Below are positions 55,333 to 63,912 of a stretch of DNA of 64,000 nt, piece after piece. Position numbers and translations under genes: made by a program. Every line of letters starts with the position of its first letter. Positions within the stretch are counted from its first letter, which is position 1. This stretch comes from Verrucomicrobiota bacterium (lineage in GTDB: Bacteria; Verrucomicrobiota; Kiritimatiellia; CAIQIC01; JAGNIJ01): contig JAKLGK010000002.1 of the NCBI GenBank assembly GCA_022710725.1, positions 248,001-312,000 of the forward strand, in the 5' to 3' direction. The notes under the pieces are model-generated. The model had not been told where the DNA came from, ran no database searches, and saw only the letters and a list, made by a program, of their open reading frames with translations.

Positions 55333-55689
55333 ATGGACCGCATCTACATACGCGACCTCGCCCTCCGGTGTATGATCGGGGTATTCCCCGAGGAGCGGCG
55401 CGAGAAGCAGGACGTGGTGATCAACGTCGTCCTGGAGTGCGATCACCGGCCCGCCGCCCGCAGCGACCGGTTGGAGGACGCGGTGGACTACAAGGCGCTC
55501 AAGAAGAAGATCGTGGCGCTGGTCGAAAGCAGCCAGTTCTACCTGGTCGAGACGTTGGCCGAGCGCATCGCCGCCGCCTGCCTCGCGAACCCGAAGGTGG
55601 AGCAGGCGACGGTGACGGTGGACAAGCCGGGGGCCCTGCGGTTCGCGCGGAGCGTGGGCGTGGAGATCACCCGGGGGCGGGCCGGATGA
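55333..55689 (+). CDS. folB: Dihydroneopterin aldolase FolB
   Basis: 118 residues. MDRIYIRDLALRCMIGVFPEERREKQ is the FolB opening, followed by DAVDYKALKKKIVALVESSQFYLVETLAERIA with the catalytic Glu/Lys region and VTVDKPGALRFARSVGVEI. Makes 6-hydroxymethyl-dihydropterin in folate synthesis. True start ATG 55333. The stop overlaps the next gene by ATGA. Confidence 0.93.
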   Translation: MDRIYIRDLALRCMIGVFPEERREKQDVVINVVLECDHRPAARSDRLEDAVDYKALKKKIVALVESSQFYLVETLAERIAAACLANPKVEQATVTVDKPGALRFARSVGVEITRGRAG

Positions 55690-55952
55690 ACCGGGCGCGG
55701 CTGGAGAAAGCGGCGGGTTGGACGGCGCTGGCCGCGGCGTTGGTCCTCGTCGGCATCGGGTGGTTCCGCTCGCACAAGGTCTACGCGGCCGATTCCGAGG
55801 AGTATGGCATCCTGGTGTTCGAACGCATCACCGACCGGCAACTGGTCGAGGACGCGACGTTCAGCGGCGTGCTCCGGCGGGAGGGGCGGCTGTTTTCCAC
55901 CTATGACCGCTCCCAGGTCCGGGGCAAGCAGGCGTGCCCTACCTGAAAGTAG
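55686..55952 (+). CDS. Small membrane-anchored protein ending CPT-Sec-Lys (putative selenoprotein)
   Basis: 88 residues if the UGA at 55944-55946 is read as selenocysteine (Sec87), then Lys and UAG. Layout: one N-terminal helix (WTALAAALVLVGIGWF), then a periplasmic FERITDRQLVEDATFSGVLRR part, ending GKQACPT-U-K, a CxxU redox motif at the C-terminus. A 6-bp hairpin with AUGGC loop begins 13 nt after the UGA, like the SECIS hairpins of the two genes downstream; it lies past the UAG, before the next start. Without recoding the protein would end at CPT. The start overlaps folB by ATGA. Sec is less sure here than in the other two. Confidence 0.55.
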
Positions 55953-55959
55953 GCCACCC

Positions 55960-55976
55960 GCGGCCATGGCGGCCGC
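55960..55976 (+). promoter_or_regulatory. Putative bacterial SECIS hairpin 1
   Basis: GCGGCC-AUGGC-GGCCGC: 6-bp perfect stem, 5-nt loop, beginning 13 nt after UGA 55944-55946. Its loop matches those of hairpins 2 and 3. It is strongly palindromic GC sequence, so chance is possible; the matching distance and loop argue against that. Confidence 0.5.
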
Positions 55977-55991
55977 TTCCAGTTCTTCATC

Positions 55992-56774
55992 GTGAACGCG
56001 CGACAAATAACTCAAACTCTTTCGCTGCTGCTGTTGAACAGTTCCTGGGGCCCGGAGCTGAAGTGGTTCTGCGCCCCCGTGCTCAACTGCCACTCCTGCT
56101 CGCTGGCCTGGTTCGCCTGCCCGATCGGGGTGTTCGTGCACTACGCCGGATACCGCGTCTTCCCGTTTCTGGCCGCGGGCGCCGTGCTGCTCCTCGGCGT
56201 CCTGCTGGGCCGGCTGCTGTGCGGCTGGATATGCCCTTTCGGCTTTCTCCAGGATATCCTGCACAAGATCCCCAGCCCCAAGTTCGGGCTGCCGCGCTGG
56301 ACCCGCGGGATCAAGTACGCCGTCCTGCTGGGCATGGTGATCGCGGCGCCCTTCTTCCTGGGCGAACAGACGCTGTACTCGTTCTGCCGGGTCTGCCCGG
56401 CGTCGGCGGTTCAGGTGACGGCGCCGAACGCGGTGCGGGCGGGGTTCGCCGGCTTGGAGACCCTCACGCTGGTCAAGCTGGGCGTTCTCGTGGCCGTGCT
56501 CGCGCTGGCCGTCTTCTGCTGCCGGTCGTTCTGCCGGGTGTTCTGCCCGCTGGGCGCGCTGCTGGCGCCGTTGAACTTTCTTTCCTTCTGGACGGTCAAA
56601 GTCCCGACGGCGGACTGCAAGCAGTGCGGAAAATGCGACGCGCTCTGCCCCGTGGAGGGGAAGCCGTCGCTCCGCGCCGCCGAGGGCGTGGATCCCGGGC
56701 GCGCGGGGGAATGCATCGCCTGCCACGAGTGCCGGTCCGCCTGTCCGCGCGACGGCGGAAAGGGAGATTCATGA
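55992..56774 (+). CDS. NapH/YccM-like membrane 4Fe-4S ferredoxin
   Basis: 260 residues. Four to five membrane helices with cysteine motifs: PVLNCHSCSLAWFACPIG, LLCGWICPFG, FCRVCPASA, CCRSFCRVFCPLG, then two ferredoxin-type clusters near the end, CKQCGKCDALCP and CIACHECRSACP. Family members pass electrons between the quinone pool or cytoplasm and periplasmic partners. Start is GTG 55992; no strong SD, so it probably depends on translation of the preceding small gene. Its stop overlaps the next gene by ATGA. It is the natural electron source for the selenoproteins around it. Confidence 0.88.
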   Translation: MNARQITQTLSLLLLNSSWGPELKWFCAPVLNCHSCSLAWFACPIGVFVHYAGYRVFPFLAAGAVLLLGVLLGRLLCGWICPFGFLQDILHKIPSPKFGLPRWTRGIKYAVLLGMVIAAPFFLGEQTLYSFCRVCPASAVQVTAPNAVRAGFAGLETLTLVKLGVLVAVLALAVFCCRSFCRVFCPLGALLAPLNFLSFWTVKVPTADCKQCGKCDALCPVEGKPSLRAAEGVDPGRAGECIACHECRSACPRDGGKGDS

Positions 56775-58705
56775 AACGCCCGGCGCCGATCCTGATCGGG
56801 CTCGCCATGCTGTCGGCCGCGCCGGCGCCAGCCGAGGACGTGGCCATGGCCTGGCAGGAAAGCGGATTCCAGCACAGCCTCTATGTTGATCTCGAGAATC
56901 AGGAAGTGGCCTTCAAGAAGGAGCCCGCCTATGCCGGGGAGCAGGTCTTGCGCGCCGCCCTGCCGTTCGGCGCCGCGCGGGCCGAACAGCTTCCCTTTGC
57001 CCTGGACTGGACCGGGAAAAAACTGCGTCTGGATGCCAATTACAACCTGGATCTGACCGATGATCCGGTTCTCGACGCCGATGCGTCCATCTCGGACCGG
57101 CTGATCTTCAAGGGCGTGGAGTTGGAGGCGGCCGGGCCTCCTGCGCGGCGCTACCGGGCCGACCTGGAATTCCCGCCGGGCGGCTCCTTCATGCTGGCCA
57201 ATCTCCGCTCGGGATGGGTCGGCACGTGGTTGCGCGGCACCTCGACGTGGCGCGTGGTCTTCGTCGACGATCTCGACGGCGCGTGGGACGAGGACGACCT
57301 GTTCGCCATGGCGGCCGACTCGGCGGAATTCCAGAAAGATCCCCGCGCCTTCGCCCTCGAACCCGTGCAGGGCCTGTTCATCGACGGAGTGCACAGCGAG
57401 ATCCGGCTGGCTCCCGCCGCAGACGGGACGTGGTTGTTCTCGATGCGGGAGACCGCCGTGCCGATGGGACGGCTGCGCGTGGCCGGCGACATGGTGGAGC
57501 GCCTTGTTCTGCAGGGAGGCGCGAAGGGGCGGAAGGCCATCCTGAACAAGCCGGGCCCCGATCCCGTGACGGTTCCGGCCGGGACCTATCCCGTTCAGGA
57601 CATCACGCTGGCAACCAGCATCGGGCGTCTGACCTCGAGCCGGCCGGCGGACCTGGTGGTCAGGGCGGGCGAAGAAACCGAACTCAAGGTCGGGGCTCCG
57701 TTGCGGAGCCGCGGCACGGCGCACCGCGACCGTGGCGAGATCGAGGTTCAGTACGAGCTCCAAGGCGTCGGCGGGGAGGCCTACCGGCTGCCGGCCGACC
57801 GGCGCACCGACGAAAACCGGCCGCGCGTCGAGATTTTTAAAGGCGGTCGAAGGGTGGCCCGCGGCGCGTTCGAGTTTGGGTGAGGAGGCTCCTGCGCGTA
57901 CTCATGGCGAGTACCTCTCAACGTCTTCGGCGACCTGCGGATCGTGACGGCGTGCGATATCGGTGACGCCGGCCCGGCGGAAGGCGCGCCCGTCTCCTTC
58001 CACTGGTCGCTCTGGTGGAGCCTCGGCTCGCGGCTCGGCTGGTTCATCCTCCTGCCCTTGATGCTGCTGAAGGAGAACCGCCGCCGCGCGGCGTGGTGGA
58101 TCGCCGTGCCCGTGGCCCTCGAGACCGCGCTGCTGTCGTACGCGGGCCGGTGGCTGGCCATGCTGGACATGATGATGCCCCTGCCGGGCATCGTTATGGC
58201 GCTGGCGGCATGCTGGCTCCTGGGCGATCGTCTGCCCCGCCGCTCCGCGTGGCGCCGGGCCGGGGCGGCGCTGGCGATATGGGGGACGGCTTGCGGCCTG
58301 GCCTGGGCGGCGGCGGCCGAGAGCTTTTCGGGTTTTCTTGTTCTGCTGGAACTGCTGCCCGCGCTGCTCGCCGGCCTGGTCTTCGCCGGCGCGTGCGCCC
58401 TGTCCCTGCGCCGCGGGCCCGGGATCAGGCCGTTCGCGGTCCGAATGCTTCCGTGGCTGGCGGCCCTGATGGCGGCGATGGCGCTCCTGCTGGCGCTCGT
58501 ATTCATGGGGGCCTCGTGGGAGGCCGGGATGTCGGAGTATCTGCTGCCCATCGCCGGCGCCGCCGTCTTGTGGGGAGCGGCCGCGGGATTTGTGATCTGG
58601 CTGCTGCTGTTGCCTTTTTTGCTGCTTGGCGCGCGCAGTTCATTGTATGCTGCACGACTAAAAGCAATGCTGTCCCCGGAAGAAAAACCCGGAGAGGCCC
58701 CATGA
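56771..58705 (+). CDS. Putative selenoprotein: periplasmic domain, UGSC motif, polytopic membrane domain
   Basis: 644 residues if UGA 57881-57883 encodes Sec371; ordinary prediction would stop there and call a separate ORF from GTG 57944 in the same frame. Signal peptide (PILIGLAMLSAAPAPAE), a ~350-residue beta-rich periplasmic domain (LRLDANYNLDLTDDPVLD; an Asp/Asn 'DANxNxDLTDDPV' element shared with the next gene), then AFEFG-U-GGSCAYSW with Cys375 four residues after Sec. After a short Ig-like stretch come about six membrane helices (FILLPLMLLKENRRR; LLSYAGRWLAMLDMMMPLPG). A SECIS-like hairpin starts 14 nt after the UGA. AGGGAG precedes the ATG, which overlaps the ferredoxin stop. Confidence 0.75.
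57898..57914 (+). promoter_or_regulatory. Putative bacterial SECIS hairpin 2
   Basis: GUACUC-AUGGC-GAGUAC, perfect 6-bp stem and 5-nt loop, starting exactly 14 nt after UGA 57881-57883 and inside the coding frame. Size and distance suit bacterial SECIS elements, which lie immediately downstream of the UGA they recode. Loop and spacing are repeated in hairpin 3 although the stem sequences differ. Confidence 0.75.
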
Positions 58706-60138
58706 TGAACCATCGGCAGATCGGGCGGCTGCTCGCGGTTTGCGCCGCGGGATGGGCCGGCCTGGCGCGGGCGGAAGGCCCGATCGAGGTGCCGCTCGCG
58801 TACCAGGCCGTGGGCGAGAATTCCCGCGAGTTCTATCCCCGAGGCATGATATCCCCCGAGCTGGCCGCCGCCGCGCCGGAAGGGGAGTGGAAGCTGCCGG
58901 AGTGGACGAGCAAGCATCCGGTCTTCACGCGGATCAAGCTGGGCGACCGGGAGCACCTGCTGGTCCTCGATGTCTCTTCCCCCCGGAGCAAGATGTTCGA
59001 TCGCCTCTACTTCGACGCCAACGCGAACCGGGATCTCACGGACGATCCGGTGATCTCCGGCAAAGTGGAAGCCGGCTACGGGAACCAGGATGTCGAGTTT
59101 CCACCGATGGCCGTGACCGTCGAAACCGGGGGCCGTTCCCTCCCGTACCGGATGAGGCCGTCCATCTACGCCTACAAGCGGGGGTCGGGCGAGACCAGCA
59201 AGGCCTTCCCCAGGATGACGATTCGCTTCATGCTGCAGACCCTCTGTTACTACAGGGGCGAGTTCGAGGCCGGCGGGGCGCGATACCGGCTGCATCTGGC
59301 CGATGTCAACGCCAACGGCGTATTCGGCGAGGCGGCGACCGAGCCGGATTCCGGGGGCGGGCGGATCTTCATGGCGGGCGACGCGTTCTACCTGTCCACC
59401 AACAAGCCCGGCTACTACGAAGCGATGACCTGCGGGACTCACTGGCACCTGGGCGGCCAGCTTTTCGCCGTGTCGCTGGCCCCGGGCCTCGAGAAGCTGA
59501 CCCTGACCCCCGCCGAGGGGCCGCTGTTCCCCCTGTCGTTCAGCACCGAGCCGGACCGGATCATGCTCTTTAATGCCGGCGCCAAGCAGTCCGTGGCGTG
59601 TTTCCGGCCGGGCCGCGAAATCCGGCTCCCGGCGGGAAGTTACCGGTTTGCCGACTACCGCTTGCTGCGGAAGGAGACCAACGGCGCGCTCTGGCAGTTG
59701 CTGGCCTCCGCCACGACCGGCGCGCCGCCCGTCGAGGTCGGCGCCGACCGCCAAGCCGAGTTGGTCCTCGGCGAGCCTTTCCGACCCGTGGTCGAGATCC
59801 CCGAATGGTCGCGCGCGGTCAAGTCGGGCAACCAGCCGGTGCGCATGAGCTTCGCGATTCGCGGCGCCGCGAACGAGATCGTGAACGACGTGTCGCTGCT
59901 GTCCGGCCAGTCGGCCCTGACGATGGGTAAGCGGGGCGCGCGGCCGAAGGAGCCTGCCTATACCATTGCCACGCCGGAAGGCGAGCTCGTCCAGCGCGGC
60001 TCCTTCGAGTATGGGTGAGGCTTCAGCTGCTCGGCCACATGGAGTGGCCCTAAAAGAGGACAGCGGTACTACCTCTTCTGCAAGTACCAGGTCGGGCCGT
60101 TCAAGACCCAGCTGGAGACGCAGGAGTTGACGCCGTAG
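58702..60138 (+). CDS. Putative selenoprotein: secreted, C-terminal UGFSC motif
   Basis: 478 residues if UGA 60016-60018 is Sec439; the frame then continues open for 39 codons to UAG 60136. Signal peptide (LLAVCAAGWAGLARAE), a large beta-rich domain with FDANANRDLTDDPV (shared with the upstream gene), LYDVNANGVFGE-like calcium-type loop, and FRPGREIRLPAGSYRF. The end GSFEYG-U-GFSCSATWSGP then RYYLFCKYQVGPFKTQ reads as a conserved Ig-like domain, not random sequence. Paralogue of the upstream gene, lacking its membrane domain. Start overlaps that gene's stop by ATGA; ATG 58705 is the next candidate. Confidence 0.75.
60033..60049 (+). promoter_or_regulatory. Putative bacterial SECIS hairpin 3
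   Basis: GGCCAC-AUGGA-GUGGCC, perfect 6-bp stem with 5-nt loop, starting exactly 14 nt after UGA 60016-60018. Same geometry and near-identical loop as hairpin 2 but an unrelated stem, the signature of a conserved RNA structure rather than copied DNA. Confidence 0.75.
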
Positions 60139-62294: not shown

Positions 62295-62678
62295 ATGGCT
62301 TCAACAAAAAACCGGATATCATGCATTACGGTGCGTGGATTCAAGTCTGTCTGCACTGAGCAGCATTTGGACATTCGGCCATTAACCATTCTTGCAGGAG
62401 CTAATAGTTCGGGGAAGTCAAGCTTCATGCAACCACTTCTTCTACTGAAGCAAACATTAGAAGCACCGGGTGATCCAGGCGCATTGCTCTTGGATGGACC
62501 AAATGTCCGCTTCACAATGGCAGAACAACTTCTTAGTCGAATTGCCGGGAAAGAATGTCAACATGATTTCGCTATAAAAATCACTCTCAAGGACGGCCAG
62601 TCGTTGGAGGCTGTTTTCCGTAGAGAGGCTGGCCGGGGCTTTGAGGTGACGTGCCCCCATTGGCGGTACCGCATTCTA
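62295..62678 (+). pseudogene. AAA ATPase (DUF3696-like), 5' fragment
   Basis: N-terminal ~120 residues of an OLD/RecF-like AAA ATPase: CITVRGFKSVCTEQHLDIRPL, Walker A GANSSGKSSFMQPLLLLKQTLE, then LLLDGPNVRFTMAEQLL. This matches ATPases with a DUF3696 C-terminus. AGGAGGG precedes the ATG. The frame runs into the IS3-family element at about 62679 and ends in its border; the Walker B part reappears beyond the element. Base composition is lower in GC than the chromosome around it, pointing to an acquired gene, possibly a defence-type ATPase (inference). Confidence 0.75.
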
Positions 62679-63542
62679 TGTTAGTTTGCCCCCTTGTTCA
62701 ATGCCAACCGGAAGGCGGAGGGGCGTAGCCCCGGAGCCTTCCGGTTGGACCGCCGCCGGGGCTGGCGGACGGTATTTCAGACTACTGTGTGGTCGAATCG
62801 CGTTGTACTCCTTTCTCCAGCGTTCTATCAGCACCTTGGCCTCCTGCAGCGTGTCGAAGATCTCCGCATTCAGGAACTCCATCCGAAGCCTGCCGTTGAA
62901 GCTTTCGATGTAGCCGTTTTCCCATGGACTCCCTGGTTCGATATACAGCGTGCCGACCCCCAGCCGTTTCAGCCAGCCCCTCACGGCCTCTGCCGTGAAC
63001 TCACTCCCATTATCGCTGCGCAAATGCCCCGGAACTCCCCGGCGCACGAACAGATCCGTCAACTGCACCAACACGTCCTCGGCCTTCAGCTGGCGCTCCA
63101 CGTTAATCGCCAGACACTCCCGCGTGTACTCATCCAACACCGTCAGCATCCGCAACGGCCTCCCCTCGCTCGTTCGCGCCTGTACGAAGTCATAGCTCCA
63201 CACGTGGTTCCGGTTCTCTGGCCGCAACCGGACACAGGACCCGTCGTTCAGCCACAGCCTCCGTCTCGGCCTCTGCCTGCGCGGGACTTTGAGCCCTTCC
63301 TGCCTCCAAAGCCGCTCCACCCGCTTGTGGTTCACCCGCCATCCCTCGTTCCGCAGCATCCCCGTCACGAGGCGGTACCCATACCGCCCGTACTGCTGGG
63401 CCAACTCGATCATTCGCCGCACCAACGGAGCCTCATCATCGGGTATCACCCACACCCGCCGCTGGGTCGTTCGCGGTTGCCCCAGCACCCGACATGCCCG
63501 CCGTTCCGACAGCGTCGGGAACGCCTCTTGCACATGGATCAT
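62676..63542 (-). CDS. IS3-family transposase OrfB
   Basis: 288 residues from ATG 63542, with the IS3 catalytic core: [16 protein letters not shown] (first Asp), [15 protein letters not shown] (second Asp) and [16 protein letters not shown] (Glu). An N-terminal HTH_21-like part ([18 protein letters not shown]) precedes it. The frame continues upstream of the ATG ([10 protein letters not shown]), so a -1 frameshift from orfA near CCAAACTTG probably makes the OrfAB transposase. The stop lies just at or beyond the element's tip. Confidence 0.93.
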
Positions 63543-63912
63543 TGCCCGGCGCCGCTTCGCCGGGCTTACAAGTTTGGGCGGGCGGCCTCCCGCAGGATCG
63601 CCTTGTCCAACTCCGCGTCAGCCAACAGCCTCTTCAGCCGGCTGTTCTCCTGTTCGAGTTCCTTGAACCGTTTGGCCTGGTCCACCCGCAGCCCGCCATA
63701 CTCTTTCCGCCACCGGTAGTATGTAACTTCCGTGATCCCCAGTTGCCGGCATACGTCCGGGACGCTCTTGCCGCGGCCTAGTTCTACGTCTGCTTCCCGC
63801 AACTTCAGGATGATCTCCTCCGCCTTGTATCGCTTCGCTCCCATGTCCTGGGCTCCTTGCTTTGCCTGCCGGATATACTATCCGGCTGGTATCGCTTCAG
63901 GGGGCCAGGTCA
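62679..63912 (-). mobile_element. IS3-family insertion sequence
   Basis: About 1.23 kb, TG...CA ends with imperfect terminal inverted repeats around GCCCCCT (TTGCCCCCTTGTTCAATGCCA at 62686-62706 against the complement of 63887-63907). Carries orfA and orfB in two minus-strand frames, as in IS3-type elements. Ends are placed to within a few bases. No matching target duplication is visible at the borders, consistent with a deletion of flanking host DNA. Confidence 0.8.
63566..63844 (-). CDS. IS3-family OrfA (HTH protein)
   Basis: 92 residues: helix-turn-helix [26 protein letters not shown] followed by a leucine-zipper-like [28 protein letters not shown]. It binds the element ends and supplies the N-terminus of the frameshifted OrfAB. 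Confidence 0.93.

What the first reader, a model, noticed from the sequence alone, without database searches (positions are those of the whole stretch)
57881..60138. Two tandem paralogous selenoproteins with in-frame UGA in F-E-[FY]-G-U-G-x-S-C
At 57881 and 60016, two neighbouring paralogues each show UGA in the same place of the same motif: FEFG-UGA-GGSCAYSW and FEYG-UGA-GFSCSATW. Past each UGA the same frame stays open and coding: 274 codons in the first, 39 in the second, which continues RYYLFCKYQVGPFKTQ like an Ig-type beta domain. A conserved UGA with conserved flanks in two proteins is hard to explain as stop codons. Sec with Cys four residues later (UxxxC) suggests a redox site. I know of no described selenoprotein family with this motif.
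Basis: partly seen in the sequence, partly recalled or inferred. Interest (0 to 1): 0.95.

Follow-up and report, generated by a model that had tools for sequence, protein, structure and literature searches.

The report
Ig-fold selenoproteins in a three-UGA operon
A bacterial gene cluster holds three in-frame UGA codons that are predicted to be read as selenocysteine rather than stop, in two related, likely exported proteins and one tiny, likely membrane-anchored protein; relatives with UGA at the same spot occur in several bacterial phyla, and a 2026 list of 119 known selenoprotein families does not contain them.

Summary
The finding holds and is larger than described. Both UGAs (57881, 60016) lie in FE[FY]G-UGA-G. 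The frame stays open for 273 and 39 codons. At the aligned position, 72 of 75 distinct sites from fetched loci are TGA. A covarying hairpin sits about 14 nt after the UGA: stems of 6 bp or more in 52 of 72 sites, against a mean of 2.6 when codons are shuffled synonymously. The genome has selA, selB, selC and selD. tRNA-Sec is present in 7 of 7 carriers and 0 of 17 non-carriers examined in the own phylum.

CPT-UGA recurs in 15 loci. In other genomes these genes sit beside selA/selB/selC.

AlphaFold places Sec in a loop of an Ig/FnIII-like domain that the read-through tail completes. No Pfam, NCBIfam or listed selenoprotein family matches. UxxxC is not universal. Likely function: an envelope selenol redox relay fed by the NapH-like protein (inferred, about 40%).

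The parts
55686..55952 (+). Small ORF 'CPTU': 88 aa incl. predicted Sec87; N-terminal hydrophobic segment; ends QACPT-U-K; starts within the FolB stop (ATGA)
   Evidence: homologues; CPT-TGA in 15 loci
55944..55946 (+). Third predicted Sec codon (TGA), CxxU, followed by one codon and TAG
55960..55976 (+). SECIS-like hairpin GCGGCC(AUGGC)GGCCGC, 13 nt after the TGA
55992..56774 (+). NapH-like membrane Fe-S protein (two Fer4_5 stretches, Fer4 dicluster), 260 aa; below the NapH cut-off
56771..58705 (+). Selenoprotein 1 (P0001): 644 aa, N-terminal signal-like helix, beta-rich part, FEFG-U371-GGSCAYSW, then several predicted helices (weak model)
57881..57883 (+). In-frame TGA, predicted Sec371 of ORF 1
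57898..57914 (+). SECIS-like hairpin GUACUC(AUGGC)GAGUAC, 14 nt after the TGA
58702..60138 (+). Selenoprotein 2 (P0002): 478 aa, signal-like helix, beta-rich, C-terminal Ig/FnIII-like domain with FEYG-U439-GFSCSATW
60016..60018 (+). In-frame TGA, predicted Sec439 of ORF 2
60033..60049 (+). SECIS-like hairpin GGCCAC(AUGGA)GUGGCC, 14 nt after the TGA

Best explanation
The UGA codons at 57881, 60016 and 55944 are predicted to be translated as selenocysteine, directed by a hairpin that begins 13-14 nt after each UGA, so that this four-gene cluster would make three selenoproteins around a NapH-like iron-sulfur membrane protein. Steps shown: the UGA position, the frame after it and the hairpin are conserved across phyla, UGA is an ordinary stop for neighbouring genes, and the genome has selA, selB, selC and selD. 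Steps inferred: Sec insertion itself (about 0.97 for the two large proteins, 0.9 for the small one); export and membrane anchoring; and the function. Most likely function (about 0.4): an envelope selenol/thiol relay, in which the NapH-like protein would pass electrons from quinol or cytoplasmic ferredoxin to the C-terminal Cys-Pro-Thr-Sec of the small protein, which would then reduce the Sec (often Sec/Cys) loop on the Ig-like domains of the two larger proteins; the final oxidant is unknown (peroxide, disulfide or a metal/metalloid species).
For: (1) Codon: 19 of 19 genome-contig loci that reach the site have TGA. Over all fetched loci, 72 of 75 distinct sites are TGA, with 1 TGC, 1 AGA and 1 GGC; they come from 50 genomes. 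(2) Tail: after UGA comes GF[ST]C in 19 of 19 of those loci and a later PF in 18 of 19 (GPF in 14). Window against the same-genus genome G371: tails 49% (269 codons) and 72% (39 codons) identical, like the 48% and 60% upstream. (3) Hairpin: stems of 6 bp or more in 52 of 72 TGA sites; synonymous shuffles give a mean of 2.6 and a maximum of 7; the three non-TGA sites have stems of 3, 3 and 2. On 56 of the 72 sites, aligned without gaps, 95.5% of cells pair (shuffled 72.3%), covariation is 0.581 (shuffled 0.162), and slid registers fall to 25-59%; all 6 pairs show changes on both sides, which 16 of 500 shuffles also reach. (4) Machinery: selB 328 bits, tRNA-Sec 72 bits, ARAGORN anticodon tca, selA 535 bits, selD 375 bits. 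(5) Co-occurrence: tRNA-Sec in 7/7 carriers against 0/17 non-carriers (own phylum); in the Planctomycetota sample 30/35 against 10/20 (p 0.006), or 20/25 against 10/20 (p 0.036) if only carriers whose UGA was seen at the Sec column count. The one Cys (TGC) homologue lies in a genome with no tRNA-Sec hit and has no hairpin. (6) Linkage: a NapH-like gene lies in the fetched flanks in 15 of the 50 genomes. Of 22 contexts that I chose to map, 17 have NapH-like, 15 CPTU, 11 selA/selB/selC; six of the 22 (L129-L134) were fetched because tRNA-Sec was near, and without them sel genes are in 5 of 16. In L098 and L129 the order is selC-selA-selB-napH with CPTU divergent; in L021, selB-CPTU-NapH. (7) Fold: the P0002 model has pLDDT 93.5 and pTM 0.89, with the tail forming three strands of the C-terminal sandwich.
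Against: No direct protein evidence. All three window hairpins have G at loop position 3 (AUGG[CA]), not in the first two positions as the published bacterial SECIS model asks; the 57881 hairpin scores -7.1 kcal/mol against a cut-off of -7.5; 47 of 72 sites meet all four published criteria strictly. Whole-stretch folding energy is hardly better than shuffles. Five of 35 Planctomycetota carriers gave no tRNA-Sec hit, and selB was over the cut-off in 13 of 19 genomes; many are MAGs. Half of the Planctomycetota non-carriers have tRNA-Sec, so the family is not the only use of Sec there. Only one Cys homologue was seen. Of 14 CPTU sites, L031 and L124 have weak stems (5 and 4), and L130 and L131 have NapH-like without CPTU found. 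Functional part: no biochemical precedent was found, no conserved substrate gene, and Cys at +4 is absent in several subfamilies.
Confidence: 0.88

Rival explanations
1. The UGAs are ordinary stop codons; the proteins end at FE[FY]G and the downstream frames are chance or regulatory.
For: All 124 listed predicted homologues end there; UGA is the stop of FolB, of the NapH-like gene and of ORF 1 itself.
Against: TGA in 72 of 75 sites, conserved in-frame tails with a mild third-position excess of changes, hairpin absent at the three non-TGA sites, tRNA-Sec co-occurrence.
Confidence: 0.02
2. UGA is read through by another route (genome-wide reassignment to Trp or Gly, or a suppressor tRNA), not as Sec.
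For: Some bacteria reassign UGA (recalled).
Against: UGA ends neighbouring genes in the same cluster; the genome has full sel machinery; a local hairpin covaries at bacterial SECIS spacing; the clean substitution seen is Cys.
Confidence: 0.01
3. Selenoproteins, but structural or metal-handling rather than a redox relay: the Sec/Cys loop would bind a metal or metalloid (Cu, Hg, As), or serve selenium handling itself, with the NapH-like protein reducing the metal.
For: Ig-like, non-thioredoxin fold; the review ties several transporter-linked selenoproteins to metals (PMC13188914); subfamilies lacking the partner Cys; genes beside selA/selB/selC.
Against: No metal-resistance gene stood out in the few neighbours that I scanned (10 proteins); the CPTU protein has a CxxU motif.
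Confidence: 0.3
4. The two large proteins are selenoproteins, but CPT-UGA in the small ORF is a true stop.
For: Only 1-2 codons follow; CPT-COOH could be a conserved C-terminus.
Against: All 15 loci have TGA, and the 14 tabulated have a second stop within 1-2 codons. Of 11 sites flagged NapH-linked 10 have a stem of 6 or more (one G-U allowed); shuffles mean 0.48, max 5.
Confidence: 0.1

Closest known systems
DUF1573-domain selenoprotein (PF07610, UGC motif)
   Same: A listed bacterial selenoprotein whose domain is, from recall, Ig-like rather than thioredoxin-like
   Different: No Pfam match to it for either protein; motif UGC against YGUG[GF]xC
UGSC-containing protein (NF041046)
   Same: Similar-looking U-G-S-C letters
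   Different: No NCBIfam match; here U-G-x-S-C on another domain, one residue longer
Tso three-selenoprotein operon and SAO system (named in PMC13188914)
   Same: Operons with several selenoproteins
   Different: No NCBIfam model, Tso and SAO ones included, matches the three proteins; partner here is NapH-like
NapH/MauN family (TIGR02163)
   Same: Membrane Fe-S protein with Fer4_5 repeats; 53 bits in the window, 80 in L099
   Different: Far below the cut-off of 213 bits; lies beside CPTU and, elsewhere, sel genes
KCU-star and UXX-star selenoproteins (named as listed in PMC13188914)
   Same: By their names, Sec within a few residues of the C-terminus
   Different: CPTU matched no NCBIfam model even at E 10; it has a membrane-like segment and CxxU

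Membership tests
Bacterial selenoprotein | In-frame UGA with conserved coding sequence on both sides | tested here: met
Bacterial selenoprotein | Hairpin 16-37 nt from UGA to apical loop, conserved by covariation | tested here: met
   spacing 72 of 72 (best stem within the scanned range); covariation
Bacterial selenoprotein | G in the first two loop positions and MFE <= -7.5 (published bSECIS model) | tested here: inconclusive
   47 of 72 meet all four criteria strictly; the three window hairpins have G third, one at -7.1
Bacterial selenoprotein | selA, selB, selC, selD in the genome | tested here: met
Bacterial selenoprotein | Cys homologue aligned to the Sec | tested here: met
   one only: L097 TGC in a genome with no tRNA-Sec hit
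Bacterial selenoprotein | Selenium detected in the protein | not testable with these tools
   needs 75Se or mass spectrometry
Catalogued selenoprotein families (119 in PMC13188914 Table 1) | Match to a family model or to the Sec motif | tested here: not met
   Pfam and NCBIfam scans without a credible match; Table 1 read. Families without a model in those libraries were compared by listed motif only
Thioredoxin-fold selenoprotein | Thioredoxin fold around Sec | tested here: not met
   P0002 model is almost all beta, with Sec in a loop of a beta sandwich
Ig/FnIII-like beta sandwich | Sandwich topology of residues 357-478 | tested here: inconclusive
NapH (TIGR02163) | Score over the curated cut-off | tested here: not met
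   53.3 against 213.05 bits

The most novel reading that the evidence does not exclude
A widespread, nearly Sec-obligate envelope redox system: a NapH-like membrane protein drives a mini-selenoprotein (CPTU) and Ig-fold selenoproteins, travels with the selC-selA-selB genes, and is a main reason why many planctomycetes and their relatives keep selenocysteine. Searches that rely on Cys/Sec pairs would have missed it because almost no Cys homologues exist.
Probability: 0.35. Interest if true: 0.92.

Novelty: new variant of a known kind. Interest (0 to 1): 0.85.

Why it matters
More than a hundred database proteins seen here are cut off at a UGA that is predicted to encode Sec, and those with a name are called 'hypothetical'. 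A selenoprotein superfamily on an Ig-like rather than thioredoxin fold, with almost no Cys counterparts, would widen the known uses of selenium. A 2016 survey (PMC5029168, passage seen) notes a few Sec-using bacteria without known selenoproteins; it blames incomplete genomes first but leaves room for unknown families such as this one. The linkage of CPTU, NapH-like and sel genes gives a concrete, testable pathway.

Tried and rejected
Folding energy of the whole stretch as a test of the hairpin: not informative (z 0.53 and -0.16; mean z -0.59, 8 of 72 with p <= 0.05), because GC-rich shuffles fold well; replaced by a stem test at the expected position. Rfam scan of the window: no match at gathering score. 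Foldseek: one match at E <= 0.001, with low TM-score, taken as generic beta sandwich. AlphaFold of P0001 is weak (pLDDT 67.7, 9 rows), so its membrane topology is not relied on. UxxxC as a universal site: rejected, several subfamilies lack the Cys. Solved structures by sequence: no match. Literature: in ten searches no listed title or abstract start names this family; two of them listed only part of what matched (25 of 121, 10 of 378), and only open-licence PMC papers are held. Seen: PMC13188914 sections 5-9; passages only of PMC12013277, PMC4807772 and PMC5029168; the others as search listings. Supplements (such as the planctomycete selenoprotein table of PMC4807772) could not be opened, and the groundwater MAG study by Deng et al. 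that the review names was not among the listings, so an earlier sighting in a table cannot be excluded.
Full report
WHAT IS THERE. The window lies in a 3.89-Mb genome (G000, contig C7:248001-312000). The closest named relatives of these proteins are from Kiritimatiellae MAGs. On the + strand, FolB is followed by four tightly packed genes: a small ORF (55686-55952), a NapH-like Fe-S protein (55992-56774), ORF 1 (56771-58705) and ORF 2 (58702-60138). FolB, the NapH-like gene and ORF 1 end with TGA, so UGA is a normal stop in this genome.

THE TWO REPORTED UGAs. ORF 1 has TGA at 57881 (FEFG-UGA-GGSCAYSW) and ORF 2 at 60016 (FEYG-UGA-GFSCSATW); 273 and 39 sense codons follow. The two proteins are homologous. 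Neither has a credible match in Pfam or NCBIfam.

CONSERVATION. The protein database gave 4 hits for ORF 1 and 208 for ORF 2 (120 listed); all 124 listed, the window's own two included, end in [FL]x[YFW][GAS], i.e. at the codon before UGA. A scan of genome contigs gave 30 loci; of the 19 that reach the site, 19 have TGA followed by GF[ST]C and an open tail with a later PF in 18 (GPF in 14). By their titles these lie in Aminicenantes, Hydrogenedentota, Sumerlaeota, Omnitrophota and several Planctomycetota. Whole-genome samples: 11 of 387 genomes of the own phylum and 109 of 392 of the phylum of G397 match the profile, many of them only in the N-terminal part. Over all fetched loci, 75 distinct sites align to the Sec column: 72 TGA, 1 TGC, 1 AGA, 1 GGC; the TGA sites come from 50 genomes. 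The AGA site is a degenerate tandem copy; the TGC site (L097) is a Cys homologue in a genome with no tRNA-Sec hit.

HAIRPIN. In most sites a stem with loop [AG]UGGC or similar starts about 14 nt after UGA. With codons shuffled synonymously, stems of 6 or more are expected in 2.6 of 72 sites (max 7); 52 are seen, and the three non-TGA sites have stems of 3, 3 and 2. On 56 of the 72 sites, which align without gaps, 95.5% of cells pair, covariation is 0.581 against 0.162 shuffled, all six pairs have two-sided changes (reached by 16 of 500 shuffles), and slid registers drop to 25-59%. RNAalifold finds five of these six pairs unprompted. The Trp codon UGG forms the loop in many members, so the protein motif and the RNA signal overlap. 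Against the published bacterial model, 47 of 72 meet all four criteria strictly; the window's three have G third in the loop, and the 57881 hairpin is at -7.1 kcal/mol.

MACHINERY. selD, selB and selA lie together at C7:165816-170296 and tRNA-Sec on C9. Carriers and tRNA-Sec: own phylum 7/7 against 0/17 (Fisher p 2.9e-6); Planctomycetota sample 30/35 against 10/20 (p 0.006), or 20/25 against 10/20 (p 0.036) for carriers seen at the Sec column. These p values ignore kinship. selB over the cut-off: 13 of 19 loci genomes.

A THIRD PREDICTED SELENOPROTEIN. The small ORF before the NapH-like gene ends QACPT-TGA-AAG-TAG. Database relatives: 32 of 34 end in CPT, 1 in CPS, 1 is frame-shifted. In 14 loci (15 with L129) the codon after CPT is TGA; in the 14 tabulated it is followed by 1-2 codons and a stop. 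The best stem starts at nt 13-19 after the TGA and has 6 or more pairs (one G-U allowed) in 12 of 14; in the window it is GCGGCC(AUGGC)GGCCGC. Of the 11 sites flagged NapH-linked, 10 have 6 or more, against 0.48 in shuffles (max 5). A C-terminal Cys-Pro-Thr-Sec would be a CxxU redox motif on a likely membrane-anchored stub.

CONTEXT. A NapH-like gene lies in the fetched flanks, which are short for many, in 15 of the 50 genomes. Of 22 contexts chosen for a map, 17 have the NapH-like gene, 15 CPTU and 11 selA, selB or selC; six were fetched because tRNA-Sec was near, leaving 5 of 16 for sel genes. In L098 and L129 the order is selC-selA-selB-napH with CPTU on the other strand (L098: selA 512 bits, selB 303 bits). 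In L021, a SelD-like protein (fused to a CMD domain), SelB, CPTU and NapH run in one direction, with two ORF 1-like and one ORF 2-like gene facing them. In the window's genome the system and the selDBA cluster are about 135 kb apart.

STRUCTURE. ORF 2 (Cys for Sec): pLDDT 93.5, pTM 0.89. Residues 443-447, 456-461 and 473-476, all beyond the UGA, are strands of the C-terminal sandwich; Sec439 is in the loop before them. A protein cut at the UGA would lack these strands. Seventeen of the 79 alignment rows carry the tail. The nearest solved folds are FnIII/Ig/MG domains at middling Z (best 7.0), which shows an arrangement, not kinship. ORF 1 is weakly modelled: beta-rich, then several long helices.

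HOW IT MAY WORK. Inferred: electrons reach the envelope through the NapH-like protein, reduce CPTU's Cys/Sec pair, and this reduces the Sec loop of the Ig-like domains, which act on an unknown oxidant. Shown: gene order, motifs, Sec signals. Not shown: export, partners, substrate. Some subfamilies lack the Cys at +4, so a mixed Sec-Cys bond inside the loop cannot be general.

KNOWN OR NEW. The 2026 review lists 119 families and describes Cys/Sec pairs as a main basis of present searches, beside SECIS-based and deep-learning ones; this family has almost no Cys members, which may explain why it was missed. No model in NCBIfam release 20 matches, and ten literature searches listed no report, within the limits told under Tried and rejected. 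It is a set of new selenoprotein families, in an operon type not described in the texts seen.

Noticed in passing
window 62295-63844: An AAA/SMC-like ATPase ORF (62295-62684) seems interrupted by an IS3-like element (ORFs 62676-63542 and 63566-63844 on the minus strand); labels recalled from the sequences, no family search run.
   Followed up: no
L021:5964-7295: A 2-hydroxyglutaryl-CoA dehydratase D-component gene (PF06050) follows the selenoprotein operon in a Hydrogenedentota MAG; L019:8931-9716 has an acyl-CoA dehydratase activase. The link, if any, is unexplained.
   Followed up: partly
L021:10435-11748: A SelD-like protein (AIRS domains) fused to a CMD domain, next to SelB.
   Followed up: no
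L071:2512: A family member whose part after the Sec codon (206 codons) matches ankyrin-repeat models (residues about 590-720).
   Followed up: no
L100, L101, L102, L103, L105: A subfamily with YG-UGA-GGGG or GSAA and no downstream Cys keeps UGA and a hairpin (GGGCUUC-GGU-GAAGCCC and variants).
   Followed up: partly
L095:3672: A tandem copy with AGA in place of TGA that has also lost the Cys and the hairpin: a decaying duplicate that serves as a natural control.
   Followed up: yes
G616 (L092), G467 (L094), G535 (L082), G676 (L072): UGA sites in genomes with no tRNA-Sec hit: incomplete assemblies or true stops; not resolved.
   Followed up: no
L031:2944, 3332, 5243; L032:3764, 5536, 7252: Runs of three UGA sites of this family on one locus, suggesting repeated local duplication.
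   Followed up: no
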